A stretch of DNA of 64,000 nucleotides from Rhodoferax sp. OV413 (GTDB taxonomy: Bacteria > Pseudomonadota > Gammaproteobacteria > Burkholderiales > Burkholderiaceae_C), in assembly GCF_900104385.1 (NCBI RefSeq), contig NZ_FNJA01000001.1, positions 222,386 through 286,385 on the forward strand, in the 5' to 3' direction. This document shows positions 3,246-22,325 of the stretch, in pieces (position 1 is the stretch's first letter; each line of letters begins with the position of its first letter). The notes under the pieces were generated by a model. It searched no databases. It was given only the letters and a program-made list of their open reading frames with translations, and was not told the DNA's origin. The translations under genes were made by a program, and so were the position numbers.

Positions 3246-4778
3246 ATGGCCGAACCCATCTTAATTGCCAAAAACGCCACCACTGTCTGCGAGTTGCTGC
3301 CCGCCCTGGCAAACCGCCATGGCCTGATCACCGGCGCCACCGGCACCGGCAAAACCGTCACCCTGCAGACCCTGGCGGAAAACTTCTCCAAGATCGGTGT
3401 ACCCGTCTTCATGGCCGACGTCAAAGGCGACCTGACCGGCATCAGCCAGGCCGGTCGCATTGGCGACAAGCTGGCCGGCATCCTGAAGGAACGCGGCATT
3501 GACCAGCCCGAATCCCTGGCCTGCCCCGCCACCCTGTGGGACGTGTTTGGCGAGCAAGGCCACCCAGTGCGCGCCACCGTGTCCGACATGGGGCCACTGC
3601 TGCTGGGCCGCATGCTGAACCTGAACGACACCCAGAGCGGCGTGCTGAACATGGTCTTCAAGATCGCCGACGACAACGGCCTGCTGCTGCTCGATTTGAA
3701 AGACCTGCGCGCCATGCTGCAGTACGTGGGCGACAACAGCAGCGAATTCACCACCCAGTACGGCAATGTGTCGGCGGCCAGTGTGGGCGCCATCCAGCGC
3801 GGCCTGCTGCAGATCGAGTCCCAGGGCGGCGACAAGTTCTTTGGCGAACCGATGCTGAACATCAGCGACTTCATGCAGACCGTCGACGGCAAGGGCGTGG
3901 TGAACATCCTGGCGGCCGACAAGCTGATGAATTCGCCACGCCTGTACGCCACCTTCTTGCTGTGGATGCTGTCCGAGCTGTTCGAGCAACTGCCGGAAAT
4001 TGGCGACCCCGAGCAGCCCAAGCTGGTGTTCTTCTTCGACGAAGCCCATCTGCTGTTCAACGAGGCGCCCAAGGCCCTGGTCGAGCGCATCGAGTTGGTG
4101 GTGCGCCTGGTGCGCTCCAAGGGCGTGGGCGTGTATTTCGTGACCCAAAACCCGCTGGACATTCCCGACTCGGTGCTGGCCCAGCTGGGCAACCGGGTCC
4201 AGCACGCGCTGCGCGCCTTCACCCCGCGCGACCAGAAGGCCGTCAAGGCCACGGCCCAGACCATGCGGCAAAAGCCCGGCCTGGACATCGAAGCCGCCAT
4301 CACCGAGCTGGCCGTGGGCGAGGCCCTGGTCAGCCTGCTGGATGCCAAGGGCCGGCCCAGCATCACCGAACGCGTATTTGTGCTGCCGCCGGGCAGCCAG
4401 CTCGGCCCCATCACCCCGGACCAGCGCAAAGTGCTGTTGCAGACCTCGCTGGTCGCCGGTATCTACGAAAAGGTGGTCGACCGCGAATCGGCTGCCGAAA
4501 AGCTGCAAGGCCGCACCCAGGCCACCGTGGCCAATGCCGCAAACAACGCCCCCGCAGGTACCCTGCCCGGCCAGGCGGCACCGGCCTCTGGCGGCGCCCT
4601 GGGCGGCGTGATGGGCGGGCTGAACGACATCCTGTTCGGCACCACCGGCCCGCGCGGCGCAAAGCACGACGGCCTGGCCCAGACCATGATGAAGTCCGCC
4701 GTGCGCACCATGGGCACCAAGGTCGGCCAGGAAATCCTGCGCGGCGTCTTGGGCGGCATCTTCGGCGGCAAAAGATAA
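3246..4778 (+). CDS. HerA-like helicase/ATPase, DUF853 (YjgR) family
   Basis: This 510-residue protein belongs to the DUF853 branch of the HerA/FtsK-type P-loop ATPases; its biological role is not established. Walker A is GATGTGKT at residues 30-37, followed by a VKGDLTG segment typical of the family; Walker B is [10 protein letters not shown] with Asp265-Glu266. The C-terminal ~70 residues are rich in Gly and Ala (low complexity) before a GxxxG-like GGIFGGKR end. It is read divergently from yebC and has a repeat-family copy immediately after its stop. There is no NurA-like partner nearby, so a role in end resection like archaeal HerA is not supported here. Confidence 0.9.
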
Positions 4779-4859: not shown

Positions 4860-5828
4860 ATGGCAGAACTCCCGCTCCCCAGCTTTGACGACGTGGCCGC
4901 AGCATCCAGCCGCATCCAGGGCCAGGCCCATGCCACGCCGGTGCTGCGTTCGCGCACCATCGACTCGCAACTCGGCGCGCAGCTGTTCTTCAAGGCCGAG
5001 AACTTCCAGCGCATGGGCGCGTTCAAGTTCCGCGGCGGCTTCAATGCGCTGTCGCGCTTCACGCCCGAGCAAAAAAAGCGCGGCGTGCTGGCGTTCTCCT
5101 CCGGCAACCACGCACAGGCGATTGCGCTGTCGGCCCAGCTGCTGGGCATGCCGGCCACCATCGTGATGCCGCAGGACGCACCCGCCGCCAAGCTGGCGGC
5201 CACCCGCGGCTACGGCGCCGAGGTGGTGACCTACGACCGCTTTACCCAGGACCGCGAGGCCATCAGCCAGCAGATCGCCCAAGAGCGCGGCATGACGCTG
5301 ATTCCGCCGTATGACCATGCCGACGTGATCGCCGGCCAGGGCACGGCGGCCAAAGAGCTGTTTGAAGAAGTGGGCGAACTGGATTATTTGTTCGTCTGTC
5401 TGGGCGGCGGCGGCCTGCTCAGCGGCTCGGCACTGTCGGCCAAGGCCTTGTCGCCGCAATGCCGCATCTACGGCGTCGAGCCGAAGGCCGGTAACGACGG
5501 CCAGCAGTCGCTGGCCCAGGGCCACATCGTGCATATCGACACCCCGCGCACCATCGCCGACGGCGCGCAGACCCAGCACCTGGGCCAGCTGACCTTCCCC
5601 ATCATCCGCCGCGATGTGGCCGGCATCGTTACCGCCAGCGACGCCCAATTGGTGCAGACCATGCGCTTCTATGCCGAGCGCATGAAGATGGTCGTCGAGC
5701 CCACCGGCTGCCTGAGCCTGGCCGGTGCCGAGCACGGCGGCGTGGACATCCGCGGCGCGCGCGTCGGCATCCTCGTCAGCGGCGGCAACGTCGACATGGC
5801 GCGTTTCGCGGAGTTGCTCGGCAGCTAG
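4860..5828 (+). CDS. PLP-dependent threonine/serine dehydratase-like ammonia-lyase
   Basis: A fold-type II PLP enzyme of the serine racemase / threo-3-hydroxyaspartate ammonia-lyase / catabolic threonine dehydratase group, 322 residues and lacking the C-terminal ACT regulatory domain of biosynthetic IlvA. The PLP lysine is Lys57 in RMGAFKFRGG; SSGNHAQAIA and the phosphate-binding GGGGLLSG loop are intact. It should deaminate a hydroxy-amino acid to the keto acid and ammonia in the cytoplasm; the exact substrate cannot be told from sequence. Its stop overlaps the stop of the convergent DUF2798 gene by three bases. No clear operon partner. Confidence 0.88.
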   Translation: MAELPLPSFDDVAAASSRIQGQAHATPVLRSRTIDSQLGAQLFFKAENFQRMGAFKFRGGFNALSRFTPEQKKRGVLAFSSGNHAQAIALSAQLLGMPATIVMPQDAPAAKLAATRGYGAEVVTYDRFTQDREAISQQIAQERGMTLIPPYDHADVIAGQGTAAKELFEEVGELDYLFVCLGGGGLLSGSALSAKALSPQCRIYGVEPKAGNDGQQSLAQGHIVHIDTPRTIADGAQTQHLGQLTFPIIRRDVAGIVTASDAQLVQTMRFYAERMKMVVEPTGCLSLAGAEHGGVDIRGARVGILVSGGNVDMARFAELLGS

Positions 5829-6219: not shown

Positions 6220-7173
6220 ATGTCCAACCTGCGTGGCATAGAAACCTTTATCCGGGCCGTCGAAGGCGGCAGCATCGCTGCGGCGGCGCGCCAGCTGGGC
6301 ATCAGCGCCGCGGCCGCCAGCCAGAACCTGGGCCGATTGGAAAAAGAACTCGGCACCCGGCTGCTGACGCGCACCACCCGCTCGCAGGCGCTGACCGCGG
6401 CCGGCGAGGTGTACTTTGCCCAGGTCGGCCCGCTGCTCGACGGCCTGGCGCAGGCCCAGTCCGAACTCTCGGCGCTGCAGGACACGGTGCAGGGCCGGCT
6501 CAAAATCTCCTGCGCGGTCGCCTTTGGCCGGCATATGGTGGCGCCGCTGATGCCGGCCTTTATGGCGCGCTACCCGCGGGTGCACCTGGAAATGCTGATG
6601 GTCGACCGCAATGTCGACCACCTGAAGGAGGACGTGGACGCCAGCATCCGCTTCCGCCACGTGCTGGAGCCCGGCCTGGTGGCGCGGCGAATCGCCACCG
6701 CGCCCATGGTGTTCTGCGCGGCACCGGCCTATCTGCAGCAGCATGGCCGGCCGACCACGCCCGAAGACCTGGCCCACCATCCCTGCCTGGCGTTTCGCCT
6801 GCCGCTGGACGGGCGACTCATGCAATGGCCGTTTCTGCGCGACGGGGTTCGCTTCGCCCCGGCCATCCAGACCGCCGCCGTGTGCAACGACATCGACACC
6901 CTGGCCGCTCTGGCCGTAGCCGGTGCCGGCGTGGCCCGGCTCGGCAGCTTCATCGCCAACCCCTTGATCGCCGCCGGCAAGCTGGAGCCGCTGTTTCTGA
7001 ATTCCGGCGGACGCGGACGCACCCGGGCCGACCCCGAGCCGCTGGAGTACTTCGCCTGCTTCCGCGACCGCCAGCACCTGCCGGCGCCGGTGCGGGTGTT
7101 CGTGGACTTCATCGCCGAAGCCTTGCAAGACCACCCGCTGCTGCGCGCGCCGGTATGGCCACTGGCGGCCTGA
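6220..7173 (+). CDS. LysR-family transcriptional regulator
   Basis: A 317-residue LysR-type regulator: N-terminal winged HTH (residues ~1-60, MSNLRGIETFIRAVEGGSI and GISAAAASQNLGRLEKELGT) and a periplasmic-binding-like effector domain (~90-295). The C-terminal region NSGGRGRTRADPEP is unusual but in frame. Its 92-bp distance to the URC1-like gene on the same strand suggests it may control uracil catabolism, although LysR proteins more often act on a divergent target, here the DUF2798 gene. Subgroup resembles the CrgA-like regulators. Effector unknown. Confidence 0.92.
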   Translation: MSNLRGIETFIRAVEGGSIAAAARQLGISAAAASQNLGRLEKELGTRLLTRTTRSQALTAAGEVYFAQVGPLLDGLAQAQSELSALQDTVQGRLKISCAVAFGRHMVAPLMPAFMARYPRVHLEMLMVDRNVDHLKEDVDASIRFRHVLEPGLVARRIATAPMVFCAAPAYLQQHGRPTTPEDLAHHPCLAFRLPLDGRLMQWPFLRDGVRFAPAIQTAAVCNDIDTLAALAVAGAGVARLGSFIANPLIAAGKLEPLFLNSGGRGRTRADPEPLEYFACFRDRQHLPAPVRVFVDFIAEALQDHPLLRAPVWPLAA

Positions 7174-7265: not shown

Positions 7266-8546
7266 ATGCCTGCTGACCTCGCCACCAGCTCCCCGGCGCC
7301 CGCCGCTCCTGGCCCCAGCCATATCCGCTTGACATCCCACGCCAGCGGCTATGGCGCCTTGCCGATACGCTGGGCCGCGGCCACCGCTACCGAGCGCGGC
7401 CCGGTGGTCGGCACCACCACCAAACGCAGCCACCGCAATGTGATCGGCACGCACAGTGGCAGCTACAGCATCTACCGCGCGCTGGCCATCGCCTCCGGCG
7501 GCCTGTCGCCCAAGCACAAGGCCGATCTGACCAACACCATGCCGACCGACATCATCGGCCCCTACCCGCAGTGGAGCGAGCCGGGCCGCATCGTCGCCAT
7601 GGACCCCTGGGGCGCGACGATTGCCGACGTGTTCTCGGCCGAGCTGGCCGCCGGCTACGACATCCGCCCGACCATCGCCGTAACCCAGGCCCATGTGATC
7701 CTGCCCGAAGTCATCGAAGCGCTGCAGTCGGGTCGCCTCAAGGCCGATGGCAAATTCCTTACCGCTGGCGGTGCCGCCATGGTCACCAAGGTGGCGGTCG
7801 AGCCGGTCTGGTACCTGCCCGAAGTCGCCAAGCGCTTCAACTGCACCGAAGCCGAACTGCGCCGCGTGCTGTTCGAAGAAACCGGCGGCATGTACCCCGA
7901 ACTGGTGACGCGCAGCGACCTGGAAGTGTTTCTGCCGCCGATCGGCGGGCTCACCGCCTACATCTTCGGCAACCCGCGCGACCTGGCGAACCCCGAGGTC
8001 GAGCTCACCGCCCGCGTCCACGACGAATGCAATGGCTCGGACGTGTTCGGCTCCGACATCTGCACCTGCCGCCCCTATCTGACGCACGCCATCGAGGAAT
8101 GCATCCAGGGCGCGCAGCGCGGCGGTGTCGGCCTGGTGTCGTATTTCCGCAAGGAAGGCCGGGCCCTCGGCGAAGTCACCAAGTTCCTGGTCTACAACGC
8201 GCGCAAACGCCAGGTCGGTGGCGACACGGCGGACCAGTATTTCAACCGCACCGAATGCGTGGCCGGCGTGCAGGACATGCGCTTCCAGGAACTCATGCCC
8301 GACGTGCTGAACTGGCTGGGCATCCGCAAAATCCACCGCCTGGTGTCGATGAGCAATATGAAGTACGACGCTATCACCCGCGCCGGCATCGAGGTGGTGC
8401 AACGGGTGAATATTCCCGACCACATGATCCCCGCCGACGCACAGGTCGAAATGGACGCGAAAATGGCGGCTGGCTACTTCACCCCCGGTGCGGTGCCAAC
8501 TGCCGAAGAATTGAAAAAGGCCAAGGGCCGTGGATTGACTGAATGA
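7266..8546 (+). CDS. URC1-like GTP cyclohydrolase II family protein, uracil catabolism
   Basis: A 426-residue RibA-related protein, roughly twice RibA length because of a long N-terminal extension. The zinc triad of GTP cyclohydrolase II is present with exact spacing (Cys255, Cys266, Cys268 in CNGSDVFGSDICTC), as is a catalytic-arginine loop YFRKEGRALGEVTK equivalent to RibA RQEGRGIGL. Proteins of this architecture are URC1 of the fungal/bacterial URC pathway, thought to open the pyrimidine ring of a uridine nucleotide. No riboflavin genes adjoin; instead URC4-like and upp genes follow with a four-base overlap and an 18-bp gap. This context makes URC1 far likelier than RibA. Confidence 0.88.
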   Translation: MPADLATSSPAPAAPGPSHIRLTSHASGYGALPIRWAAATATERGPVVGTTTKRSHRNVIGTHSGSYSIYRALAIASGGLSPKHKADLTNTMPTDIIGPYPQWSEPGRIVAMDPWGATIADVFSAELAAGYDIRPTIAVTQAHVILPEVIEALQSGRLKADGKFLTAGGAAMVTKVAVEPVWYLPEVAKRFNCTEAELRRVLFEETGGMYPELVTRSDLEVFLPPIGGLTAYIFGNPRDLANPEVELTARVHDECNGSDVFGSDICTCRPYLTHAIEECIQGAQRGGVGLVSYFRKEGRALGEVTKFLVYNARKRQVGGDTADQYFNRTECVAGVQDMRFQELMPDVLNWLGIRKIHRLVSMSNMKYDAITRAGIEVVQRVNIPDHMIPADAQVEMDAKMAAGYFTPGAVPTAEELKKAKGRGLTE

Positions 8547-9820
8547 CTATGGATTTGATAGCTGCTGACGCAGATATAACAAGCGCTGCAGCCCTGTTGC
8601 GCTCAACAAAAGCGATACGCAGCCGGGCCCAGGCCCTGCTGGCGCGGGCCCGCGCCGGCGGCTCGGCCTACTTCACGGTAGATGACGCCGCGCTGCAGCC
8701 CACCGCCGCCCTGGTGGCCCAGGTGACGCGCGAGCGTTACCCGAGCCTGAAGATCCCGTACCACAGCCGCTGGCGGCATTTCGAGGCCGGCAAGGTAGAC
8801 CGTACTGCGCTGCTGAACGAAGAACTGGGCAAGGTATCCGTGGCCAAACGCGCCCGCGCCCACATCGACCTGGCCATCGTCAGCGTGCTGCTCGATGCCG
8901 GCTCGGGCCCCGACTGGAGCTACACCGACCCGCGCACCGGCCAGAAGCTCAGCCGCTCCGAAGGCCTGGGCGTGGCCAGCTACAACGCCTTTACCAAGGG
9001 CTTGTTTTCCAGCAAGCCGACCCAGCCTTGCCAGGCCGATGCGCTAGGCCTGCAGAATCTGACGGCACGCCAACTCGGCGATGCCTTCCAGGTCGGCGTG
9101 GAGAACCCGCTGGTCGGGCTCGAAGGCCGGGCCGCGCTGCTGCGGCGCCTGGGTGAAGTCATCGCCGCCCAGCCCGAAGTGTTTGGCGGTGCTGGCGGCC
9201 TGTGCCGGCCGGGTCGCTTGTTCGACCATCTGGTGCCAGCCGATTCTGATGCGCCAACGGTGGCCGCACACGACATTCTTGTAGCCTTGTTAAGCACGCT
9301 GTCGCCCATCTGGCCTGCGCAGAACGCAATCAAAACCGAAGCGGGCAACGAAATTTCGCTGGGCGACTGCTGGCGCCACAGCGCCGTGCCCGGCGTGGGT
9401 GCCAGCGCCGGCTGGATGCCTTTCCACAAGCTGTCGCAGTGGCTGTCGTATTCGCTGCTGGAACCGCTGGAATGGGCCGACGTAACCGTCACCGGCCTGG
9501 ATGCGCTGACGGGCTTGCCCGAATACCGCAACGGCGGCCTGCTGCTCGACGGCGGCGTGCTGGCTTTGAAGAACCCGGCGCTGGCCCAACAGGCGCAGAC
9601 CGCTGGCGATGAATGCATCGTCGAATGGCGCGCGCTGACGGTGGCGCTGCTGGACGAACTGGCTCCGCTGGTGCGCGCCGAGCTGGGTTTGACGGCCGAG
9701 CAGATGCCGCTGGCCTGCGTGCTCGAAGGCGGCACCTGGGCCGCCGGCCGGGTGCTGGCCCAGCGCCTGCGCGGTGGCACGCCGCCCCTGAATATCGCCA
9801 GCGATGGCACCGTGTTTTAA
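8543..9820 (+). CDS. URC4-like protein (DUF1688), uracil catabolism
   Basis: A 425-residue DUF1688 protein, the family of fungal URC4/urg3, required in the URC pathway downstream of URC1; its reaction is not settled. Landmarks are PYHSRWRHFEAGKVDR, LGVASYNAFTKGLFSS and a C-terminal ACVLEGGTWAAGRVLA. It starts at an ATG overlapping the URC1 stop (ATGA). The first ~17 codons (MDLIAADADITSAAALL) coincide with a copy of the dispersed repeat, so the N terminus is partly repeat-derived; DUF1688 homology begins just after it. Likely co-translated with its neighbours in a uracil-degrading operon. Confidence 0.87.
   Translation: MTMDLIAADADITSAAALLRSTKAIRSRAQALLARARAGGSAYFTVDDAALQPTAALVAQVTRERYPSLKIPYHSRWRHFEAGKVDRTALLNEELGKVSVAKRARAHIDLAIVSVLLDAGSGPDWSYTDPRTGQKLSRSEGLGVASYNAFTKGLFSSKPTQPCQADALGLQNLTARQLGDAFQVGVENPLVGLEGRAALLRRLGEVIAAQPEVFGGAGGLCRPGRLFDHLVPADSDAPTVAAHDILVALLSTLSPIWPAQNAIKTEAGNEISLGDCWRHSAVPGVGASAGWMPFHKLSQWLSYSLLEPLEWADVTVTGLDALTGLPEYRNGGLLLDGGVLALKNPALAQQAQTAGDECIVEWRALTVALLDELAPLVRAELGLTAEQMPLACVLEGGTWAAGRVLAQRLRGGTPPLNIASDGTVF
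8551..8596. repeat. Dispersed repeat, copy R2, inside URC4-like coding region
   Basis: Bases with GATTTGATAGCTGCTGACGC and CAGATATAACAAGCGCTGCAG match the family order seen in R8 and R9 (GATAGCT, GCGCAG, AAGCGC). It encodes residues 4-18 of the URC4-like protein in frame. Confidence 0.6.
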
Positions 9821-9838
9821 CTTGGAATCGAAGACATC

Positions 9839-10468
<630 letters not shown>

Positions 10469-10521
10469 GGCTCTAGGGCTTATTCAATCAGCGCCACCAG
10501 CTATCTAAAACATAGCATTAT
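10469..10521. repeat. Dispersed repeat, copy R3
   Basis: Directly after the upp stop: GGCTCTAGGGCTTATTCAAT, then AGCGCCACCAGCTAT and AAAACATAGCATTAT. Same block order as R13 but with a degraded central palindrome. It may act as the transcript end after upp. Confidence 0.65.
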
Positions 10522-10542
10522 CCGGCACTGCAGGGCAGCCTG

Positions 10543-13500
10543 ATGGCGGAAAACGCTGACCCGGCAGAAAACAAAATCACCGACAATTTCCAGCAGAGAA
10601 GTGGAGTGGCCGCTGCGCCCGATCTACAGCAGGAAAACCAAGTGAAAGACCCCGAAGTCCCTTTCTGGCGGATTTTCCAGAGCAACCCCAGGCCGATGTG
10701 CGTGTACGGCCTGGAGTCCGGGCGTTTTCTTGCCGTCAATCCCGCCATGCTGGCGTTTTATGGCTATGCCGAGCCCGAGCTGCTGGGCCTGCCGGTCGGC
10801 GATCTCTGGCCCGCCGGCCCGGAACCCGTGGCCCCCCTCTTTCCCCTGCCCGCACAGCCGCCCCGCACCTACGGCCATCGCCGCAAGGATGGCGGCCTGG
10901 TGGAGGTTGAAATCACCGCCGACGACGTAGGCTTCCTGGGCCAGCCCGCGCATATGTGGGTGGTGGTGGACGTGACCCCGCGGGTCCAGGCCGAGCGCGA
11001 ATGGGCGCGCCTGAGCCGGGCGCAAACCATGCTCAGCAGCTGCAACGAGGCGCTGATCCGCACCGACACGCAAGATCTGCTGCTGCAGAAAATCTGCCGC
11101 ATCGCGGTCGACATCGGCGGTTATTTCGGCGCCTGGGTGGGACTGGCGCGGGACGACGACTTGCGCAGCATCGAATCCGTGGCCTTTGCGGGTATCCGGC
11201 CGATCTCGGTGTTCCCACACGGCGCATCCTCGTCGGAATCCCTGCCGGGGGGGCGGGGCGCGGCCGGGCGCACGGTTCGCAGCGGCCAGGTGGTCATCAT
11301 GGATGACATCCTGCGGCCAGAAAACCAGCTGCCCTCAAGCCTTGTGCTGGCGGATGCCGGCGTGCGCGGCCTGATCAGCCTGCCGCTGTCCGATGCCGAA
11401 CGCACCTTCGGCGTGCTGTTTTTGTACTCCGCCGAGCCCATCCAGGCCAGCGCCGAAGAAATCCAGCTGCTGCAGGAACTGGCCGACGACCTGGCTTTCG
11501 GCATCCGCAATCTGCAGGCCCAGCACGAAGCCCGGCGCGATGTGCAGACGCGCCGGGAAATCCTGGACATCCAGCAGGAGCTGGCCTTGCCGGACAAAGA
11601 CCTGGTGGAAGCCATGACCGTGATGGCCGGCCGGGTACGCAACCTGACCGGTGCCGATGGCTGCGCGGTGGACTTCGTGGAGGGCGATGAACTGGTGACC
11701 CGGGCGCGGGCCGGCCTGGAGCCCCTGCTGCCGCTGGGCTTCAGGCTGCCGCTGAACAACAGCCTGGCCGGCATTGCGGTGGCCACCCGCCGCACCATGT
11801 TCAGCGAAGACACCAGCAACGATGCGCGCGTCAACCAGGCCATCGCCACCCTGCAGCAGAACGTGCGCTCGCTGGTCATCCTGCCGCTGCTAGTGCACGG
11901 CGAGGCCATCGGCGTGCTGAAAGCCGCCTGGGCGCAACCACGCGGCTTTGCAGAGCGCGATGTGGCGAACCTGCAAATCCTGGTGCAGACCCTGGGCGCC
12001 ACCATCCAGCAGCACCGCATGGCCGACCAGCTGCGGGCCTCCGAGAACCAATACCGCCTGCTGTTTGCGCAGAACCCGCAACCCATCTGGGTGGCCGAGA
12101 ACATCACCCTGAAGCTGCTGGCCGTCAACCAGGCCATGGTCCACCACTACGGCTATACCGAGCAGGAATTGCTGGGCATGACGATCCGCGAGCTGTGGGC
12201 CGAGGCCGCCCAGGAAAGCGAAGCCATCGTGCAGCAGCATATGCGGGAGAGCAGCCCCTACACCGGCACCCGGCGCCACCGCCGCAAGGATGGCTCGGTG
12301 ATCGACGTGGTCATCACCTCCAACCCCATCGTCTTCAACGGCACGGCGGCGCGGCTGATACTGGCCTCCGACGTGACCCAGCGGCTGCAGGCCGAGCGCG
12401 ATCTGGCGCGGCTCAGCCGGGCGCAGCGCATGCTCAGCACCTGCAACGAGGCCTTGATACGCGCCAGCTCGCGCGAGAAGCTGCTGTCTGACATTTGCCG
12501 CATCACCATCGACATCGGCGGCTACCTGGGCGCTTGGGTGGGTTTTGCCCACGACGATGCCGCCAAGTCGATAGAGTGCGTGGCGGTGGCCGGCCTCAAC
12601 CTGGACGCCTTCTGCACCGGCGACCTGAGCTGGGATGCTGACTCGCCCCAGGGCCAGGGTCCGGTCGCCCGCACGCTGCGCAGCGGCCAGGTCTGCGTGG
12701 TCAACAACCTGGACGGCGAAGACGCCTCCCTGCGCGGTCGCAACGAAGAATTCCGTGAAGCCGGATTCCAGAGCGTGGTCTTGCTGCCGCTGCGCGATGC
12801 CCAGCGCACCTTTGGCGTGATGTACCTGATTGCCGGCGTACACACCATCGGCCAGGACGAAATCACCCTGCTGCAAGAGCTGGCCAACGATCTGGCTTTT
12901 GGCATTGGCAACCTGCGGGCGCAGGAACAGCAGCGCCGGGTACAAGCCGCCATGCTCAAGGTGGCGGCCGCCGTCTCGGCAAGCTACGGCCTGGAGTTTC
13001 TGGCCCAGCTGGCGCGCAACATGGCCCAGGCGTTGGACGCCCAGGCTGCGTTCATCACCCGCCTGCTGCCGGGCTCGCCGCCCCAGGGCCGCACGCTGGC
13101 CGCAGTGTTCAACGGCCAGGTGCTGGACAACTTCGACTACCCGATCCAGGGCACGCCCTGCGCGGCCTTGGCCGAACACGCCCACTGGGTGGTGCCGGCC
13201 GATGTGATGGCGCGCTACCCGCAGGCCGCAGACCTGGCCCGGATGCAAGCCCAGGCCTATGTGGGCCAGCGCCTGGACGATGCCGAAGGCCATGCCATCG
13301 GACAAATCTTCGTGCTGTTCAGCACGCCGGTGGAGGAGCCGGAATTCGTCCTGTCCACCCTGCAGATCTTTGCCGCCCGGGTGGCCGCCGAGATGCAGCG
13401 GCAAAAAGCCGACGCCCACATCCGCGACCAGGCCGCGCTGCTGGACAAAGCGCAGGACGCCATCATTCTGCGCAGCCTGAGCGACGGCGTGGTGTACTGG

Positions 13501-15093
13501 AACCGCGGCGCTGAGCGCCTGTACGGCTGGACCGCCGAGGAAGTCCATGGCCAGTTCATGGCCGACAAGCTCTACCGCGACACCACCCAATTCCACGACA
13601 ACCTCAAGAAGCTGTTGGTCACGGGCGTCTGGAAGGGCGAGGTAGAGCATCTGCGCAAGGACGGCAGCACCGTGGCGGTCGAATCGCACTGGACCTTGGT
13701 GCACGACGACCAGGGCCGGCCGCAGTCGGTGCTGTCCATCAACACCGACATTACCCTGCGCAAGGCCGCCGAACGCGAAATCCAGCAACTGGCCTTCTAC
13801 GACCAGCTGACCCGGCTGCCGAACCGCCAACTGCTGATGGACCGGCTGCAGCAGGCACTGTCTGCCAGCGCGCGCAGCGGCCGCTGTGGTGCCCTGCTGT
13901 TCATCGACCTGGACAACTTCAAAACCCTGAATGACACCCTGGGCCACGAAAGCGGCGACATGCTGCTGCAGCAAGTGGGCATGCGCCTGAGCACCTGCAT
14001 ACGCGACATGGACACCGTGGCCCGGTTTGGCGGCGACGAGTTTGTGGTGATGCTGGAAGACCTGGGCCACAACGACGCCGAAGCCGCGGTGATCGCGCGC
14101 AACACCGGCGAGAAGATTCTGCAGGCGCTGGCCGTGTCCTATGTGCTGAACGGCAACGAGCACCGCACCACCTCCAGTATCGGGGTGGCACCGTTTGGCC
14201 GCCGCCACAGCGGCGCCAGCGAACTGCTCAAGCAAGCCGACCTGGCCATGTACCAGGCCAAAACCTCGGGCCGCAACGCGATCCGCTTCTTCGACCCCAG
14301 CATGCAGGCGGTGGTCAACGCCCGGGTGCAGCTGGAGTTCGAGATGCGGCTGGCGCTGACCCAGCACGAATACCTGCTGCACTACCAGCCGCAGTTCTGC
14401 GCGGCCGGCCACATCATCGGCGTGGAAGCGCTGGTGCGCTGGCTGCATCCGCAGCGCGGCCTGATCTCGCCAGCCGAATTCATACCCGCCGCCGAAGACA
14501 CCGGCATCATCATCCCGCTGGGCCAGTGGGTGCTGAGCCAGGCCTGCCAGCAGCTCAGCATCTGGCAGGCCAGGGCCCACACCGCCCACCTGAGCATGGC
14601 GGTCAATGTGAGCGCGCGGCAGTTCCGCAACCCCGATTTCGTGGACCAGATCACCCAGATCCTGCGCAGCACCGGCATCGACGCGCGCGGGCTCAAGCTG
14701 GAGCTGACCGAAAGCCTGCTGGTCGAAGACCTGGAGCAGACGATTGCCAAGATGAGCGCGCTGAAAGCCCTGGGCCTGTGCTTTTCGCTGGACGACTTCG
14801 GCACCGGCTATTCATCGCTGTCCTACCTCAAGCGCTTGCCGCTGGACCAGCTGAAGATCGACCAATCCTTCGTGCGCGACATTGCCACCGATGCGAACGA
14901 CGCCTCCATCGTGCAAACCATCATCGCCCTGGGCAAGAGCCTGGGCCTGGCGGTGATTGCCGAGGGCGTGGAGACCAGCGCCCAGCGCGACTTTCTGGCC
15001 CAGCACGGCTGCGTCAACTACCAGGGCTATTTGTTCAGCCGCCCCCTGCCGATCCGCGAGCTTGAAACCATTTTGCTTGCCACGGCAACCTAG
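10543..15093 (+). CDS. Multi-sensor diguanylate cyclase/phosphodiesterase (PAS/GAF/GGDEF/EAL)
   Basis: A 1,516-residue cytoplasmic c-di-GMP enzyme without membrane segments. Order: PAS (~45-150), GAF (~165-325), GAF (~340-490), PAS (~505-615), GAF (~630-795), a further GAF-like region (~805-945), PAS (~955-1075), GGDEF, EAL. The PAS-GAF units at ~45-330 and ~505-795 are internal duplicates (LSRAQTMLSSCNEALIR versus LSRAQRMLSTCNEALIR). GGDEF is intact at 1163-1167 with an RxxD inhibitory site five residues before it, and EAL is intact at 1295-1297, with DDFGTGYSSL and the lysine motif QLKIDQSF. Both activities are therefore possible; the net output is unknown. Start at ATG 10543; it sits between pyrimidine genes with no obvious functional link. 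Confidence 0.95.
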   Translation: MAENADPAENKITDNFQQRSGVAAAPDLQQENQVKDPEVPFWRIFQSNPRPMCVYGLESGRFLAVNPAMLAFYGYAEPELLGLPVGDLWPAGPEPVAPLFPLPAQPPRTYGHRRKDGGLVEVEITADDVGFLGQPAHMWVVVDVTPRVQAEREWARLSRAQTMLSSCNEALIRTDTQDLLLQKICRIAVDIGGYFGAWVGLARDDDLRSIESVAFAGIRPISVFPHGASSSESLPGGRGAAGRTVRSGQVVIMDDILRPENQLPSSLVLADAGVRGLISLPLSDAERTFGVLFLYSAEPIQASAEEIQLLQELADDLAFGIRNLQAQHEARRDVQTRREILDIQQELALPDKDLVEAMTVMAGRVRNLTGADGCAVDFVEGDELVTRARAGLEPLLPLGFRLPLNNSLAGIAVATRRTMFSEDTSNDARVNQAIATLQQNVRSLVILPLLVHGEAIGVLKAAWAQPRGFAERDVANLQILVQTLGATIQQHRMADQLRASENQYRLLFAQNPQPIWVAENITLKLLAVNQAMVHHYGYTEQELLGMTIRELWAEAAQESEAIVQQHMRESSPYTGTRRHRRKDGSVIDVVITSNPIVFNGTAARLILASDVTQRLQAERDLARLSRAQRMLSTCNEALIRASSREKLLSDICRITIDIGGYLGAWVGFAHDDAAKSIECVAVAGLNLDAFCTGDLSWDADSPQGQGPVARTLRSGQVCVVNNLDGEDASLRGRNEEFREAGFQSVVLLPLRDAQRTFGVMYLIAGVHTIGQDEITLLQELANDLAFGIGNLRAQEQQRRVQAAMLKVAAAVSASYGLEFLAQLARNMAQALDAQAAFITRLLPGSPPQGRTLAAVFNGQVLDNFDYPIQGTPCAALAEHAHWVVPADVMARYPQAADLARMQAQAYVGQRLDDAEGHAIGQIFVLFSTPVEEPEFVLSTLQIFAARVAAEMQRQKADAHIRDQAALLDKAQDAIILRSLSDGVVYWNRGAERLYGWTAEEVHGQFMADKLYRDTTQFHDNLKKLLVTGVWKGEVEHLRKDGSTVAVESHWTLVHDDQGRPQSVLSINTDITLRKAAEREIQQLAFYDQLTRLPNRQLLMDRLQQALSASARSGRCGALLFIDLDNFKTLNDTLGHESGDMLLQQVGMRLSTCIRDMDTVARFGGDEFVVMLEDLGHNDAEAAVIARNTGEKILQALAVSYVLNGNEHRTTSSIGVAPFGRRHSGASELLKQADLAMYQAKTSGRNAIRFFDPSMQAVVNARVQLEFEMRLALTQHEYLLHYQPQFCAAGHIIGVEALVRWLHPQRGLISPAEFIPAAEDTGIIIPLGQWVLSQACQQLSIWQARAHTAHLSMAVNVSARQFRNPDFVDQITQILRSTGIDARGLKLELTESLLVEDLEQTIAKMSALKALGLCFSLDDFGTGYSSLSYLKRLPLDQLKIDQSFVRDIATDANDASIVQTIIALGKSLGLAVIAEGVETSAQRDFLAQHGCVNYQGYLFSRPLPIRELETILLATAT

Positions 15094-15128
15094 CGCTGCG
15101 CTAGCAGCTGCATTTTTGATAGCATGCA
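15091..15128. repeat. Dispersed repeat, short copy R4
   Basis: TAGCGCTGCGCTAGCAGCTG followed by TTTTTGATAGCATGC begins at the stop of the c-di-GMP gene. It shares AGCAGCTgcatTTTTGATAGC with the family but is shorter; a partial copy. Confidence 0.45.
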
Positions 15129-15152
15129 GCTTGCAAGAATTTTGATAGGACG

Positions 15153-16445
15153 ATGATGCTGGATCTCTTGGTCACCAACGCCACCCTGCCCGACGGCCGC
15201 ACCCAGATGTCGCTGGCGGTGCAAGACGGCAAGTTTGTCGACGTCGCGCCCGGCCTGGCCGCCGCCGCGCAGCAGACCATAGACGCCCAGGGCCTGCTGG
15301 TCAGCCCGCCGTTTGTCGACGCGCATTTCCACATGGACGCCACCCTGAGCTACGGCCTGCCGCGGGTCAACCAGAGCGGCACCCTGCTGGAAGGCATTGC
15401 GCTGTGGGGCGAACTCAAGCCGCAGCTGACCCAGGAAGCCCTGGTGCAGCGGGCGCTGGCCTATTGCGATTGGGCGGTGGGGAAGGGCCTGCTGGCGATC
15501 CGCAGCCACGTCGACATCTGCGACCCGCGCCTGCTGGCCGTCGAGGCGCTGCTGGAGGTGAAACGCCAGGTCGCGCCCTACCTCGACCTGCAACTGGTAG
15601 CCTTTCCGCAAGACGGCGTGCTGCGCGACCCCAACGGTATGGACAAGCTGAAGCGCGCATTGGAGATGGGCGTAGACGTGGTCGGCGGCATCCCGCACTT
15701 CGAACGCACCATGGCCGACGGCGCCCTGAGCGTCAAGCTGTTGTGCGAACTGGCGGCCGAGCAAGGCAAGCTGGTCGACATGCACTGCGACGAGTCCGAC
15801 GACCCGCTGTCGCGGCATATCGAAACCCTCACCTATGAGACCAACCGCCTGGGTCTGCACGGCCGGGTCACCGGCTCGCACCTCACGTCCATGCACTCCA
15901 TGGACAACTACTACGTGAGCAAGCTGCTGCCGCTGATGGCCGAGGCGCAGATCCACGTCATCAGCAACCCGCTGATCAACATCACCCTGCAGGGCCGGCA
16001 CGACACCTACCCCAAGCGCCGCGGCATGACCCGCGTGCCCGAGATGATGGCCCAGGGCCTGACCGTCGCGCTGGGCCAGGACTGCGCGATGGACCCCTGG
16101 TACAGCCAGGGCAGCGGCGACATGCTGGAAGTCGCCAGCATGGGCTTGCACGTGGCCCAGATGACCAGCCAGGCCGCCATGCGCCAGTGCTTCCAGGCGG
16201 TCACCGCCAACCCCGCCAAGATCATGCAACTGCAAGGCTACGGCCTGGAGGCGGGCTGCAACGCCGACTTCGTACTGCTGCAAGCACAGGACCCGGTGGA
16301 AGCCATCCGCCTGCGCGCCACCCGCCTGCAGGTGTTCCGGCGCGGCAAACTGCTGGCCCAGACCCCGGCGAACACCGCCCGGCTGCAACTGCCGGGACGG
16401 CCCGACAGTGTGGACTGGATGCTGCGACAGCACGTCCAGGCCTGA
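15153..16445 (+). CDS. Cytosine deaminase-like amidohydrolase (CodA family)
   Basis: Predicted to hydrolyse cytosine (or a related pyrimidine/purine) to uracil and ammonia in the cytoplasm. The 430-residue TIM-barrel amidohydrolase keeps the E. coli CodA metal and catalytic residues with a constant offset of three: His58 and His60 (VDAHFHMD), His211 and Glu214 (DMHCDESDDP), His243 (GSHLTSMHSM) and Asp310 (GQDCAMDPWY). E. coli Asp314, which touches the substrate, is Cys311 here, and the preceding His is Gln309, so specificity may differ; isoguanine or another base are alternatives. No CodB permease adjoins. With upp-URC upstream it would feed cytosine into uracil breakdown. Confidence 0.85.
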   Translation: MMLDLLVTNATLPDGRTQMSLAVQDGKFVDVAPGLAAAAQQTIDAQGLLVSPPFVDAHFHMDATLSYGLPRVNQSGTLLEGIALWGELKPQLTQEALVQRALAYCDWAVGKGLLAIRSHVDICDPRLLAVEALLEVKRQVAPYLDLQLVAFPQDGVLRDPNGMDKLKRALEMGVDVVGGIPHFERTMADGALSVKLLCELAAEQGKLVDMHCDESDDPLSRHIETLTYETNRLGLHGRVTGSHLTSMHSMDNYYVSKLLPLMAEAQIHVISNPLINITLQGRHDTYPKRRGMTRVPEMMAQGLTVALGQDCAMDPWYSQGSGDMLEVASMGLHVAQMTSQAAMRQCFQAVTANPAKIMQLQGYGLEAGCNADFVLLQAQDPVEAIRLRATRLQVFRRGKLLAQTPANTARLQLPGRPDSVDWMLRQHVQA

Positions 16446-16460
16446 TGAACCGTTCTGAAC

Positions 16461-17264
16461 ATGAAAAAAGCATTCTTCTTCGATATCGACAATACCTTGC
16501 TGGACCACCAAACCAAGCAAATCCCCCCATCGGCCTTGCAGGCCATTGACGCACTGAAAGCCGATGGCCATATGGTGGTGATTGCCACGGGGCGCGCCTA
16601 TGGGCACGCCGTGGAATTCATCGATTTGATCCAGCCCGCCTATGCGATTACGCAAAACGGCGCCCGCATCATGCGCGGCGATATAGAGGTGGACAAACAC
16701 CCCTTGCCTGGGGCCAGCTTGGCAAAGCTGTTCCAGCTGCTTGAATCCAAAGGTTTTTATTACGGCGCCACGGATGGCTACGCGGCCCATGTGAGTGCCA
16801 TGGTGGACGAGGTGCTGCTGCCGATGGAATCGGTGGATTTGAGTTCGCAGGCCGATTTGAAAACCACTCAGCCGTTTGAGATCTTCCAGGGCTGGATGTT
16901 CTTCCATGAGCAGCATGACGCCACGCTGATGCCCGAATTGGTCAGCGCTTTCCCGGAATTTGACTACATCCGCTGGCACACCACGGCTCTCGACGTGCTG
17001 CCCAAAGGCGTGAACAAAATGACCGGCTGCGCCTGGGTGCTGGCCGACGCCGGCATGCACGCCGCGCACGCCTATGCCTTTGGCGACGGCCTGAACGACA
17101 TCGAAATGCTGCAAGGCGTAGGCACCGGCATCGCCATGGGCAACGCGCATCCGCGCCTCAAGGCCGTGGCGGACCGGGTTGCCGAGGCGATCCACCACGA
17201 CGGCCTGGCCAAGATGGTGGCGCAACTGCGGCAAGAGTGGCTCGGTTTGGCGTATGCCGCATAA
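16461..17264 (+). CDS. HAD-superfamily phosphatase, Cof type (HAD-IIB)
   Basis: A 267-residue HAD hydrolase of the Cof/sugar-phosphatase type. Motif I is FFFDIDNTLLD with Asp8 (nucleophile) and Asp10, motif II IATGR, and motif IV AFGDGLNDIEML near residue ~212, all intact. The long insert between motifs II and III is the C2b cap. Substrate unknown; Cof proteins dephosphorylate sugar phosphates, pyridoxal phosphate or flavin mononucleotide. It follows the deaminase by 15 bp, so the two are probably co-transcribed; a role in clearing a nucleotide-derived phosphate is possible but only inferred. Confidence 0.88.
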   Translation: MKKAFFFDIDNTLLDHQTKQIPPSALQAIDALKADGHMVVIATGRAYGHAVEFIDLIQPAYAITQNGARIMRGDIEVDKHPLPGASLAKLFQLLESKGFYYGATDGYAAHVSAMVDEVLLPMESVDLSSQADLKTTQPFEIFQGWMFFHEQHDATLMPELVSAFPEFDYIRWHTTALDVLPKGVNKMTGCAWVLADAGMHAAHAYAFGDGLNDIEMLQGVGTGIAMGNAHPRLKAVADRVAEAIHHDGLAKMVAQLRQEWLGLAYAA

Positions 17265-17732: not shown

Positions 17733-18854
17733 ATGTCCGATTTGTTGCTGACCCCACTCAACGCGCTGCACCTGGAGCTCGGTGCCCGCATGGTGCCGTT
17801 TGCCGGCTACAGCATGCCGGTGCAATACCCGGCCGGCCTGATGGCCGAGCACCACCACACCCGCAACGCCGCCGGCCTGTTCGATGTATCCCACATGGGC
17901 CAGCTGCGCCTGGTCGGCCCGGACGCCGCCGCCGCGTTTGAAACCCTGGTGCCGGTGGACGTGATCGACCTGGCCGTAGGCAAGCAGCGCTACGGCCTGC
18001 TGTTGAACGACGACGGCGGCATCATCGACGACCTGATGCTCTTCAAGCGCGAGGCCGACATCTTTGTGATCGTCAACGGCGCCTGCAAGGTTGAAGACAT
18101 CGCCCACATCCAGGCCAAGATCGGCCAGCGCTGCGAAGTCATCCCCATGCCAGAAATGGCGCTGCTGGCGCTGCAAGGCCCGCAGGCCGTGGATGCTCTG
18201 TCGCGCCTGGCGCCGGGCGTGGAGAAGCTGGTCTTCATGACCGGCGGCAGCTTCATGGTTGCCGGCATCCCCTGCTTCCTGACCCGCAGCGGCTATACCG
18301 GCGAAGACGGTTTTGAAATCTCGGTGCACGCCGAGCAGGCCGAGGCCCTGGCCCGCGCACTGCTGGCCCAGCCTGAAGTCAAACCCATAGGCCTGGGCGC
18401 ACGCAACTCGCTGCGCCTGGAAGCCGGCTTGTGCCTGTACGGCAATGACCTGGACCCGACCACTACGCCTATCGAAGCCGGCCTGAACTGGGCACTGCAA
18501 AAGGTGCGCCGCACCGGCGGTGCCCGCGAAGGTGGCTTTCCAGGTGCTATCAAAATCCTAGCGCAACTCGCATGTGCTACGGGCGCTATTACCCGGAAAC
18601 GTGTAGGTCTGGTGGCCCTGGAGCGCATCCCCGTGCGCGAGCACACTGCCCTGCAGGACGCGGCCGGTAACGCCATCGGTGAAGTCACCAGCGGCCTGCT
18701 TGGCCCCACGGTAGACAAGCCGATCGCCATGGCCTACGTGGCGCCCGAGTTCGCGGCCATCGGCACCCAAATCAACGCCGTCGTGCGAGGCAAAATCGTG
18801 CCGATGGAAGTCGTCACCATGCCTTTCACGCCCAACCGCTATTTCCGCGGCTGA
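17733..18854 (+). CDS. gcvT: Glycine cleavage system T protein (aminomethyltransferase)
   Basis: GcvT moves the methylene group from the aminomethyl-lipoyl arm of GcvH to tetrahydrofolate and releases ammonia. The 373-residue protein has the expected fold: [20 protein letters not shown] at the start, [27 protein letters not shown] and the [20 protein letters not shown] segment (split for length). Residues ~271-286 ([16 protein letters not shown]) coincide with a sequence resembling the dispersed repeat. First gene after the glycine riboswitch; gcvH follows after 25 bp. Confidence 0.97.
18544..18591. repeat. Repeat-like segment R6 inside gcvT
   Basis: GTGCTATCAAAATCCTAGCG, CAACTCGCATGTGCTACGGG and CGCTATT carry the GCTATCAAAAT and GCGC/TAGCGC blocks of the dispersed family, read in frame within gcvT. 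The match is weaker than for intergenic copies, so it could be coincidence. Confidence 0.4.
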
Positions 18855-18879
18855 TTCCATTTTTTACAGGAGCAACCCC

Positions 18880-19251
18880 ATGAGCATCAAGTACACCGAA
18901 GACCACGAATGGCTGAACATCGAGGGCGACACCGCCACCGTCGGCATCACCCACCACGCGCAAGACGCGCTGGGTGACGTGGTGTTTGTCGACCTGCCCG
19001 CAGTCGGCACGACTTTCGCCCAGAAGGATGTGGCCGGCGTGGTCGAGTCGGTGAAAGCCGCTGCCGACGTCTACATGCCCGTGTCCGGCGAAATCACCGA
19101 GGTCAACGAAGCCCTGCGCGCAGACCCGGCCCTGGCCAACACCGACCCACTGGGTGCCGGCTGGTTCTTCAAGGTCAAGCTGTCGGACCAGTCCCAAGTG
19201 GCTGCCCTGCTCGACGAAACCGCCTACAACGCCTTTAGCCAAAACGCCTGA
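18880..19251 (+). CDS. gcvH: Glycine cleavage system H protein
   Basis: GcvH is the lipoyl carrier that shuttles the aminomethyl group between the P, T and L proteins. The 123-residue protein is typical in length; the lipoylated residue is Lys59 in [19 protein letters not shown]. An AGGAG lies 9-13 bases before its ATG. It is in the gcvTHP order under the glycine riboswitch, with a 194-bp repeat-filled gap before gcvP. No lpd-type L-protein gene is in the window, as usual because Lpd is shared with other complexes. Confidence 0.97.
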
Positions 19252-19260
19252 AGCTAAGCA

Positions 19261-19358
19261 CACCCCCAGGCTGCAGCGCTACGCGTCTTTCGCCAACCCC
19301 CTTGCAGGGGGCAACACCAGCAGCCTGGCAAAGCCAGTTCTGCGGTGTTTCTGGAAGA
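19261..19358. repeat. ~100-bp dispersed repeat family 2, copy A
   Basis: Starts 9 bp behind the gcvH stop codon. CACCCCCAGGCT, CAACCCCCTTGCAGGGGGCA, ACACCAG, CCTGGCAAAGCCAGTT and CGGTGTTTCTGGA recur at 58415-58514 in the same order, with about 80% identity by eye. It contains nested inverted repeats (CCCCCTTGCAGGGGG; TGGCAAAGCCA). Confidence 0.85.
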
Positions 19359-19398
19359 GCCAGGCGCCGCTTACCTCGGTTGCTCTAACCCTCACCCA

Positions 19399-19422
19399 CC
19401 CTCTCTCTCGCTCGGGAGAGGG
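19399..19422. repeat. Hairpin in the gcvH-gcvP gap
   Basis: CCCTCTC and GAGAGGG form a 7-bp stem around a 10-base loop, 24 bases before the gcvP ATG. No U-tract follows, so it is not an obvious terminator; it could slow transcription or stabilise the upstream gcvTH message. Confidence 0.4.
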
Positions 19423-19445
19423 CGTAAAACCATAGCGACTTCCCA

Positions 19446-22325
<2,880 letters not shown>

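What the first reader, a model, noticed from the sequence alone, without database searches (positions are those of the whole stretch)
7266..16445. Cytosine-to-uracil-to-URC ring-opening gene set in one region
URC1-like (zinc triad Cys255/266/268), URC4-like (DUF1688) and upp are contiguous (4-bp overlap, 18-bp gap), and a CodA-like deaminase lies on the same strand 4.7 kb on. The URC route, worked out in yeast, opens the ring of a uridine nucleotide made by uracil phosphoribosyltransferase. A complete bacterial version with a cytosine feeder, and with an unrelated c-di-GMP sensor wedged between, is little studied. The missing later step (URC6-type or downstream dehydrogenase) is not visible.
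Basis: partly seen in the sequence, partly recalled or inferred. Interest (0 to 1): 0.7.

Follow-up and report, generated by a model that had tools for sequence, protein, structure and literature searches.

The report
Uracil-breakdown operon with predicted ribosylurea-cleaving enzyme
This is a bacterial copy of a known route for breaking down uracil for nitrogen; what is new here is a structural clue that its least understood protein cuts the sugar off the opened uracil ring, like a known queuosine-salvage enzyme.

Summary
The genes are real and at the stated places: URC1, URC4/DUF1688, upp, then a PAS/GAF/GGDEF/EAL gene and a CodA-type deaminase, all on +. The set is of a known kind: URC1 is 81% identical to a solved UTP cyclohydrolase (7eev) and separate from RibA. 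The 'missing URC6' is a mistake: URC6 is uracil phosphoribosyltransferase, i.e. upp (PMC7530994). The cytosine link is common: codA lies downstream in 22 of 29 Comamonadaceae loci with enough sequence held, in some after an ABC transporter that this locus lacks. The GGDEF/EAL gene is an occasional insertion. New here: a confident URC4 model (pLDDT 92.7) matches only the nucleosidase Qng1 in the PDB (11 of 11 hits with E<=0.001); profile comparison agrees (96%); and Qng1's Lys199, Asp231, Asp298, Trp302 line up with URC4 Lys296, Glu327, Glu395, Trp399. URC4 is thus most likely the N-glycosidase that frees urea from (phospho)ribosylurea, which makes an open step testable. Its activity is inferred, not shown.

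The parts
6220..7173 (+). LysR-type regulator, 92 bases before URC1 on the same strand; candidate regulator of the set
   Evidence: PF03466 + PF00126; among L001-L108 a tblastn hit (E<=1e-10) only in L046, 88%, at the same place
7266..8546 (+). URC1 = UTP cyclohydrolase type; zinc triad C255/C266/C268; D337 and R339 aligned with the Asp and Arg of canonical RibA (their catalytic role is recalled)
   Evidence: NF005536 781.7 bits; 335 of 413 residues identical to PDB 7eev_A, titled 'Structure of UTP cyclohydrolase'; separate from RibA-type domains, 100/100
8543..9820 (+). URC4 (DUF1688), predicted (phospho)ribosylurea N-glycosidase; K296, E327, E395, W399 as predicted active site
   Evidence: PF07958 490 bits; model pLDDT 92.7; all 11 PDB hits with E<=0.001 are Qng1/DUF2419; hhalign 96.2% to 13 Qng1 proteins, unrelated pair 0.2%
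9839..10468 (+). upp, uracil phosphoribosyltransferase (the bacterial URC6)
   Evidence: PF14681 255 bits; NF001097 290.9 and TIGR01091 275.1 bits, both over cut-off
10543..15093 (+). PAS/GAF/GGDEF/EAL c-di-GMP protein, 1516 aa; occasional neighbour, not taken as part of the pathway
   Evidence: relative 80% identical over the GGDEF/EAL half between upp and codA of L046
15153..16445 (+). CodA-type cytosine deaminase, likely cytosine-to-uracil feeder
   Evidence: NF005748 805.1 bits over cut-off 438; NF006685 421.5 bits, under its cut-off 483; nearest solved chains are cytosine deaminases, E about 1e-109; linked to URC in 24 of 35 family loci

Best explanation
A uracil-catabolic (URC) gene set of a Rhodoferax-like Comamonadaceae bacterium. 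Cytosine is deaminated to uracil (CodA-type enzyme); Upp joins uracil to PRPP, giving UMP; housekeeping kinases make UTP (inferred); URC1, a zinc UTP cyclohydrolase, opens the ring and leaves a ribosyl-urea (phosphate) plus a C3 acid; URC4, a Qng1-fold N-glycosidase with Lys296, Glu327, Glu395 and Trp399 at its active site, hydrolyses the bond between ribose and urea, releasing urea and ribose (5-phosphate), which can return to PRPP. Urea is then broken down by urease or urea carboxylase coded elsewhere in the genome. Shown by sequence or model: gene identities, URC1's near-identity to a solved UTP cyclohydrolase, URC4's fold and residue match. Inferred: URC4's reaction and whether its substrate is phosphorylated, co-transcription, cytosine as the deaminase's substrate.
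For: Families and coordinates. URC1 81% identical to UTP cyclohydrolase 7eev, split from 20 RibA-type domains with 100/100 support; URC1-type domain in 10 of 10 URC4-positive and 0 of 5 URC4-negative genomes examined. Conserved linkage. URC4 fold: all 11 hits at E<=0.001 are Qng1, best E 4.7e-9, TM 0.57/0.69 for 7ugk_A, next hit E 0.85. Sequence: PF10343 Q_salvage is the second most often matched Pfam family of 51 URC4 proteins (11 of 51 at E<=10, best 0.0027), DUF1688 is matched by 1 of 13 Qng1 proteins (0.0028), hhalign 96.2% and 89.4% against 0.2% for an unrelated pair. K296, E327, W399 invariant in 51 of 51 (A1) and 31 of 31 (A3), E395 in 51 and 30. PMC7530994 (passages): the URC4 product turns ribosylurea into urea. 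The genome has urease alpha and urea carboxylase (1870 bits), and no RutA over cut-off.
Against: Both Qng1 Asp are Glu in URC4, so the chemistry could differ. The PF10343 gathering score (25) is not reached by any score seen, and the window's own URC4 does not list Q_salvage at E<=10; sequence searches of the PDB with URC4 found no Qng1. Foldseek rmsd is large (5.9-7.6 A over about 405-419 columns). The transporter found in many relatives is absent here; its lipoprotein has only a 36% relative in the genome. A 4.55-kb c-di-GMP gene lies between upp and codA. URC1 is the only PF00925 hit of this genome with the zinc triad, which leaves a riboflavin role formally open. No expression or growth data.
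Confidence: 0.8

Rival explanations
1. URC1 is (also) the cell's GTP cyclohydrolase II for riboflavin.
For: In the window's genome the only other PF00925 match (L109) lacks the zinc cysteines and the EGRGIG motif; URC1 is the only hit with the triad. The same holds for 6 of the 10 URC4-positive genomes examined (G000, G039, G017, G099, G132, G183).
Against: 81% identity to a UTP cyclohydrolase; RibA models far under cut-off (TIGR00505 55.9 vs 205.85); tree split 100/100; 4 of the 5 URC4-negative genomes (G002, G003, G004, G007) also show only a degenerate domain, so the gap exists without URC1; gene set with URC4 and upp. The search's first look could have missed a canonical RibA.
Confidence: 0.05
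2. URC4 is not a glycosidase but hydrolyses an amide or ureido bond, the Qng1 fold being reused for other chemistry.
For: The two Asp of Qng1 are Glu in URC4; URC4 has its own invariant residues H74, R76, R78, H79.
Against: Yeast URC4 is placed at ribosylurea to urea, which reads as a glycosidic cleavage; the Lys, the Trp and two acidic positions are kept; no other fold matched at E<=0.001.
Confidence: 0.15
3. The CodA-type gene and the c-di-GMP gene are chance neighbours and not functionally tied to the URC core.
For: 4.7 kb separates codA from upp; a close relative of the c-di-GMP gene at this place was found in one other locus only (L046); 7 of 29 family loci with enough sequence lack codA.
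Against: codA downstream on the same strand in 22 of 29, in both loci taken from another family of the order (L168, L169), and directly after upp in several loci (e.g. L058, L073, L106). For the c-di-GMP gene the chance-neighbour reading stands.
Confidence: 0.15

Closest known systems
URC pathway of Lachancea kluyveri (URC1, URC4, URC6, with urea amidolyase)
   Same: URC1, URC4 and UPRT (URC6) homologues; urea breakdown genes elsewhere in the genome
   Different: Bacterial; tight gene cluster; codA linked; urease as well as urea carboxylase in the genome
UTP cyclohydrolase (PDB 7eev, 7ej3)
   Same: URC1 81% identical over 413 residues
   Different: Ordinary divergence only, as far as seen
Qng1 / DUF2419 queuosine-5'-monophosphate N-glycosidase (7u07, 7u91, 7ulc, 7ugk)
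   Same: Fold of URC4; Lys199 and Trp302 positions kept
   Different: Asp231 and Asp298 are Glu327 and Glu395; URC4 is longer (425 aa); below the Pfam cut-off; different predicted leaving group (urea)
CodA cytosine deaminase (E. coli; 1k6w)
   Same: Among the closest solved relatives (that 1k6w is from E. coli is recalled)
   Different: NCBIfam subfamily NF005748; under the cut-off of the sister subfamily NF006685

Membership tests
URC uracil-catabolic gene set | URC1 of UTP cyclohydrolase type | tested here: met
   NF005536 over cut-off; 81% to 7eev
URC uracil-catabolic gene set | URC4 / DUF1688 | tested here: met
   PF07958 490 bits, residues 19-425
URC uracil-catabolic gene set | uracil phosphoribosyltransferase (URC6) | tested here: met
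   upp models over cut-off
URC uracil-catabolic gene set | urea breakdown in the same genome | tested here: met
   urease alpha; urea carboxylase over cut-off; allophanate hydrolase not searched
URC uracil-catabolic gene set | growth on uracil as nitrogen source depends on the genes | not testable with these tools
   needs the organism
GTP cyclohydrolase II (RibA) | RibA model score over cut-off and grouping with RibA | tested here: not met
   TIGR00505 55.9 vs 205.85, NF001591 63.8 vs 148; own side of a branch, 100/100
GTP cyclohydrolase II (RibA) | zinc-binding Cys triad | tested here: met
   C255/C266/C268; shared with UTP cyclohydrolase, so not discriminating
Qng1 / Q_salvage (PF10343) | score over the family cut-off | tested here: not met
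   best E 0.0027 among 51 URC4 proteins; scores seen singly 11.8-16.0 bits vs cut-off 25
Qng1 / Q_salvage (PF10343) | same fold | tested here: met
   Foldseek prob 1.00, 11 of 11 hits at E<=0.001, on a predicted model
Qng1 / Q_salvage (PF10343) | Asp231 and Asp298 (with Lys199, Trp302) | tested here: not met
   Lys and Trp kept, both Asp replaced by Glu in URC4
Cytosine deaminase CodA | activity on cytosine | not testable with these tools
   only model scores: NF005748 met, NF006685 not met

The most novel reading that the evidence does not exclude
URC4/DUF1688, a family of unknown function in bacteria and fungi, is a distant sister of Qng1: a (5-phospho)ribosylurea N-glycosidase with a Glu/Glu pair in place of Qng1's two Asp. 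The URC pathway would then use PRPP as a handle: the ribose is put on uracil by Upp, kept through ring opening, and given back as ribose-5-phosphate when URC4 frees urea.
Probability: 0.72. Interest if true: 0.6.

Novelty: new member of a known kind. Interest (0 to 1): 0.45.

Why it matters
The gene set itself is one more member of a known kind. The useful part is that the least understood enzyme of the URC pathway, found in bacteria and fungi, gets a fold, a predicted reaction and four residues to mutate. That would link uracil breakdown to tRNA-base salvage through one enzyme superfamily and explain how the sugar phosphate is recovered. The frequent codA linkage, and the BMP/ABC transporter beside it in some relatives, suggest what the set is for: taking up and using environmental pyrimidines as a nitrogen source.

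Tried and rejected
URC1 as RibA: rejected on model scores, tree and identity to UTP cyclohydrolase. A missing URC6-type step: rejected, URC6 is UPRT. c-di-GMP gene as a conserved part: rejected; in the family draw 1 of 35 loci (L143) has a GGDEF gene between upp and codA. Outside that draw, clusters c19 (PAS-GGDEF) and c25 (CheX-like) have 7 loci each; the layout was printed for L046, L050 and L056, and minus-strand GGDEF hits between upp and codA are also seen in L051, L052, L055, L057.

Led nowhere: sequence searches of the PDB with URC4 or its profiles (nothing; 69: two chance-level matches, no Qng1); PF10343 in 398 Pseudomonadota genomes (0 of 398; the control also did not ring, so absence is not shown) and in two mycobacterial genomes (0 of 2); promoter and terminator scans, hardly more than shuffles give (2 promoters vs 1.6, 10 terminators vs 8.1). 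The URC1 model was poor (pLDDT 58.2) and was used only to read the titles of the PDB entries it matched. Papers: searches for DUF1688 (4 papers, listing only), UTP cyclohydrolase (31), 7EEV/7EJ3 (32, none), Qng1 (57, 20 of 34 listed; passages of two read in 67, 68), UrcA/UrcB (82), URC4 with nucleosidase or queuosine (92), URC with codA (93, none): nothing seen that links DUF1688 to Qng1. The key papers (Andersen 2008, recalled and seen as a reference; Zhang 2021 and Hung 2023, seen as references) were not read. Not tested: reductive pyrimidine pathway, a second upp, fate of the C3 acid, allophanate hydrolase.
Full report
WHERE IT IS. The window lies in a 5.7-Mb genome in 23 contigs; its nearest relatives in the named collection are Rhodoferax and other Comamonadaceae (URC4 89% identical in L045). 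On the + strand stand a HerA-like gene (3246-4778), a PALP enzyme (4860-5828), a LysR regulator (6220-7173), URC1 (7266-8546), URC4 (8543-9820), upp (9839-10468), a PAS/GAF/GGDEF/EAL gene (10543-15093), a CodA-type deaminase (15153-16445), a HAD phosphatase (16461-17264) and gcvT-gcvH-gcvP.

URC1. NCBIfam names it by NF005536 (781.7 bits, cut-off 403); RibA models stay far under their cut-offs. 335 of 413 aligned residues are identical to PDB chain 7eev_A. The molecule is named 'GTP cyclohydrolase II' there, but the entry title is 'Structure of UTP cyclohydrolase'. In a tree of 30 PF00925 domains from 15 genomes the 10 URC1 domains form one side of a branch (length 2.87) with 100/100 support; under a midpoint root they stand next to the 5 canonical RibA domains, and the tool warns that long branches meet. 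The other 15 RibA-type domains are degenerate. Of the 15 genomes, the 10 with URC4 all have a URC1-type domain and the 5 without URC4 have none.

A POINT AGAINST, TOLD IN FULL. The genome's other PF00925 match (L109, in a 401-aa frame, RibBA-like by length only) has lost the zinc cysteines and the EGRGIG motif, so URC1 is the only hit in G000 with the triad. The same is true of 6 of the 10 URC4-positive genomes (G000, G017, G039, G099, G132, G183); the other four have a canonical RibA. This could hint at a riboflavin role. But 4 of the 5 URC4-negative genomes (G002, G003, G004, G007; not G013) likewise show only a degenerate domain, so the gap exists without URC1; the search may also have missed a canonical RibA. 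Left unexplained.

URC6 IS UPP. [quoted passage not shown] The 'missing URC6-type step' is thus present as upp. The genome holds urease alpha and urea carboxylase (1870 bits) for the urea; no RutA match is over the cut-off.

LINKAGE. In 108 loci (64 from genome contigs, 44 from genome searches; L001 is the window's own and some genomes occur twice) URC1 lies beside URC4 in 108 and upp is found in 101; the 44 are about 4 kb or shorter. For an even sample I took the 39 matches, left out the window's genome, two genomes with partial matches (G083, G115) and one below cut-off (G080), and fetched the other 35. URC1 is immediately upstream in 35 of 35, upp is held in 33 of 35, codA lies within 12.5 kb downstream on the same strand in 24 of 35, or 22 of 29 where at least 12.5 kb is held. 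In 11 of 35 a BMP-type lipoprotein, an ABC ATPase and two permeases follow URC4, in 9 with codA too (families). The window has none of these four genes there; the best relative of the lipoprotein in its genome is 36% identical, whereas the copies in the fetched loci are 73-87% identical to the query, except one divergent-strand hit of 32% in L157. So cytosine linkage is common, and the window's locus is a form without the transporter and with a c-di-GMP gene in the gap. A close relative of that gene at this place was seen only in L046.

URC4. An alignment of 51 proteins (window plus 50 of the 64 loci, filtered at 88% identity and 380 aa) gave a model with mean pLDDT 92.7, pTM 0.91. Foldseek against the PDB found 11 chains with E<=0.001, all 11 queuine salvage enzyme DUF2419 (Qng1), one entry of them human; the next hit has E 0.85. 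Sequence gives weak support of its own: Q_salvage is the second most often matched Pfam family, in 11 of 51 URC4 proteins at E<=10, best 0.0027, but not in the window's own. Of 20 URC4 proteins looked at singly (16 of them in the 51), 6 list it and 14 do not. DUF1688 is listed by 1 of 13 Qng1 proteins (0.0028). The Qng1 set has 13 sequences from 12 genomes of 396 in the phylum of L063, a Mycolicibacterium (three matches below cut-off dropped). hhalign gives 96.2% (E 2e-9) for the broad URC4 set A3 (31 proteins) and 89.4% for A1; URC1 against the same Qng1 set gives 0.2%.

ACTIVE SITE. Numbering of the Sphaerobacter enzyme was counted by hand on the chain printed: Lys199 and Asp231 are the residues mutated in 7u5a and 7ulc (titles); Asp298 and Trp302 are named active-site residues in PMC11592518 (passages). 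Read column by column, the alignment pairs these positions with URC4 Lys296, Glu327, Glu395 and Trp399. They are invariant in 51 of 51 (A1) and, in A3, in 31, 31, 30 and 31 of 31. All 13 Qng1 proteins have Lys, Asp, Asp, Trp. So URC4 probably works like Qng1 but is not a member of that family: it misses the Pfam cut-off and has Glu for both Asp.

MECHANISM. Upp: uracil + PRPP to UMP. Kinases: UMP to UTP (inferred). URC1: UTP ring opening (by near-identity; exact products recalled only in outline). URC4: (phospho)ribosylurea to urea and ribose(-5-phosphate) (inferred from fold, residues and the yeast placement). Whether the 5'-phosphate is still on is open; Qng1's primary substrate is queuosine-5'-monophosphate (PMC11592518, passages), which favours it.

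NOVELTY. The gene set is known (PMC3869809, passages; PMC12507026, passages). The four papers of the held library that contain 'DUF1688' (listing) are not about nucleosidases or queuosine by title, and the combined search found no link to Qng1. Most subscription papers are not held, so an earlier mention cannot be excluded.

Noticed in passing
L109 (own genome C5:1280158-1280622), also L175-L182, L185, L186: RibA-type domains of Comamonadaceae without the zinc cysteines and EGRGIG motif; in 5 of 5 URC4-positive comamonads G000, G017, G039, G099, G132 and in URC4-negative G002, G003, G004, G007 no canonical RibA was found by PF00925 (G058 and G013 have one). Where GTP cyclohydrolase II activity comes from is open.
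   Followed up: partly
L047 6213-12645; also L062, L067, L101, L134, L141, L148: A BMP lipoprotein / ABC ATPase / two-permease transporter sits between upp and codA in a number of URC loci: a likely pyrimidine or nucleoside uptake system, absent from the window.
   Followed up: partly
L050 12785-14714; also L046, L056 and probably L051, L052, L055, L057: PAS-GGDEF gene plus CheX-like gene on the opposite strand between upp and codA; c-di-GMP genes recur in this gap in a few related genera.
   Followed up: partly
window 16461-17264: HAD (Cof-type) phosphatase 15 bases after codA; no tblastn hit (E<=1e-10) in L001-L108, of which 44 are too short to reach that far. Could act on a sugar phosphate, or be a chance neighbour.
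   Followed up: no
window 17733-22325: gcvT-gcvH-gcvP glycine cleavage genes follow on the same strand.
   Followed up: no
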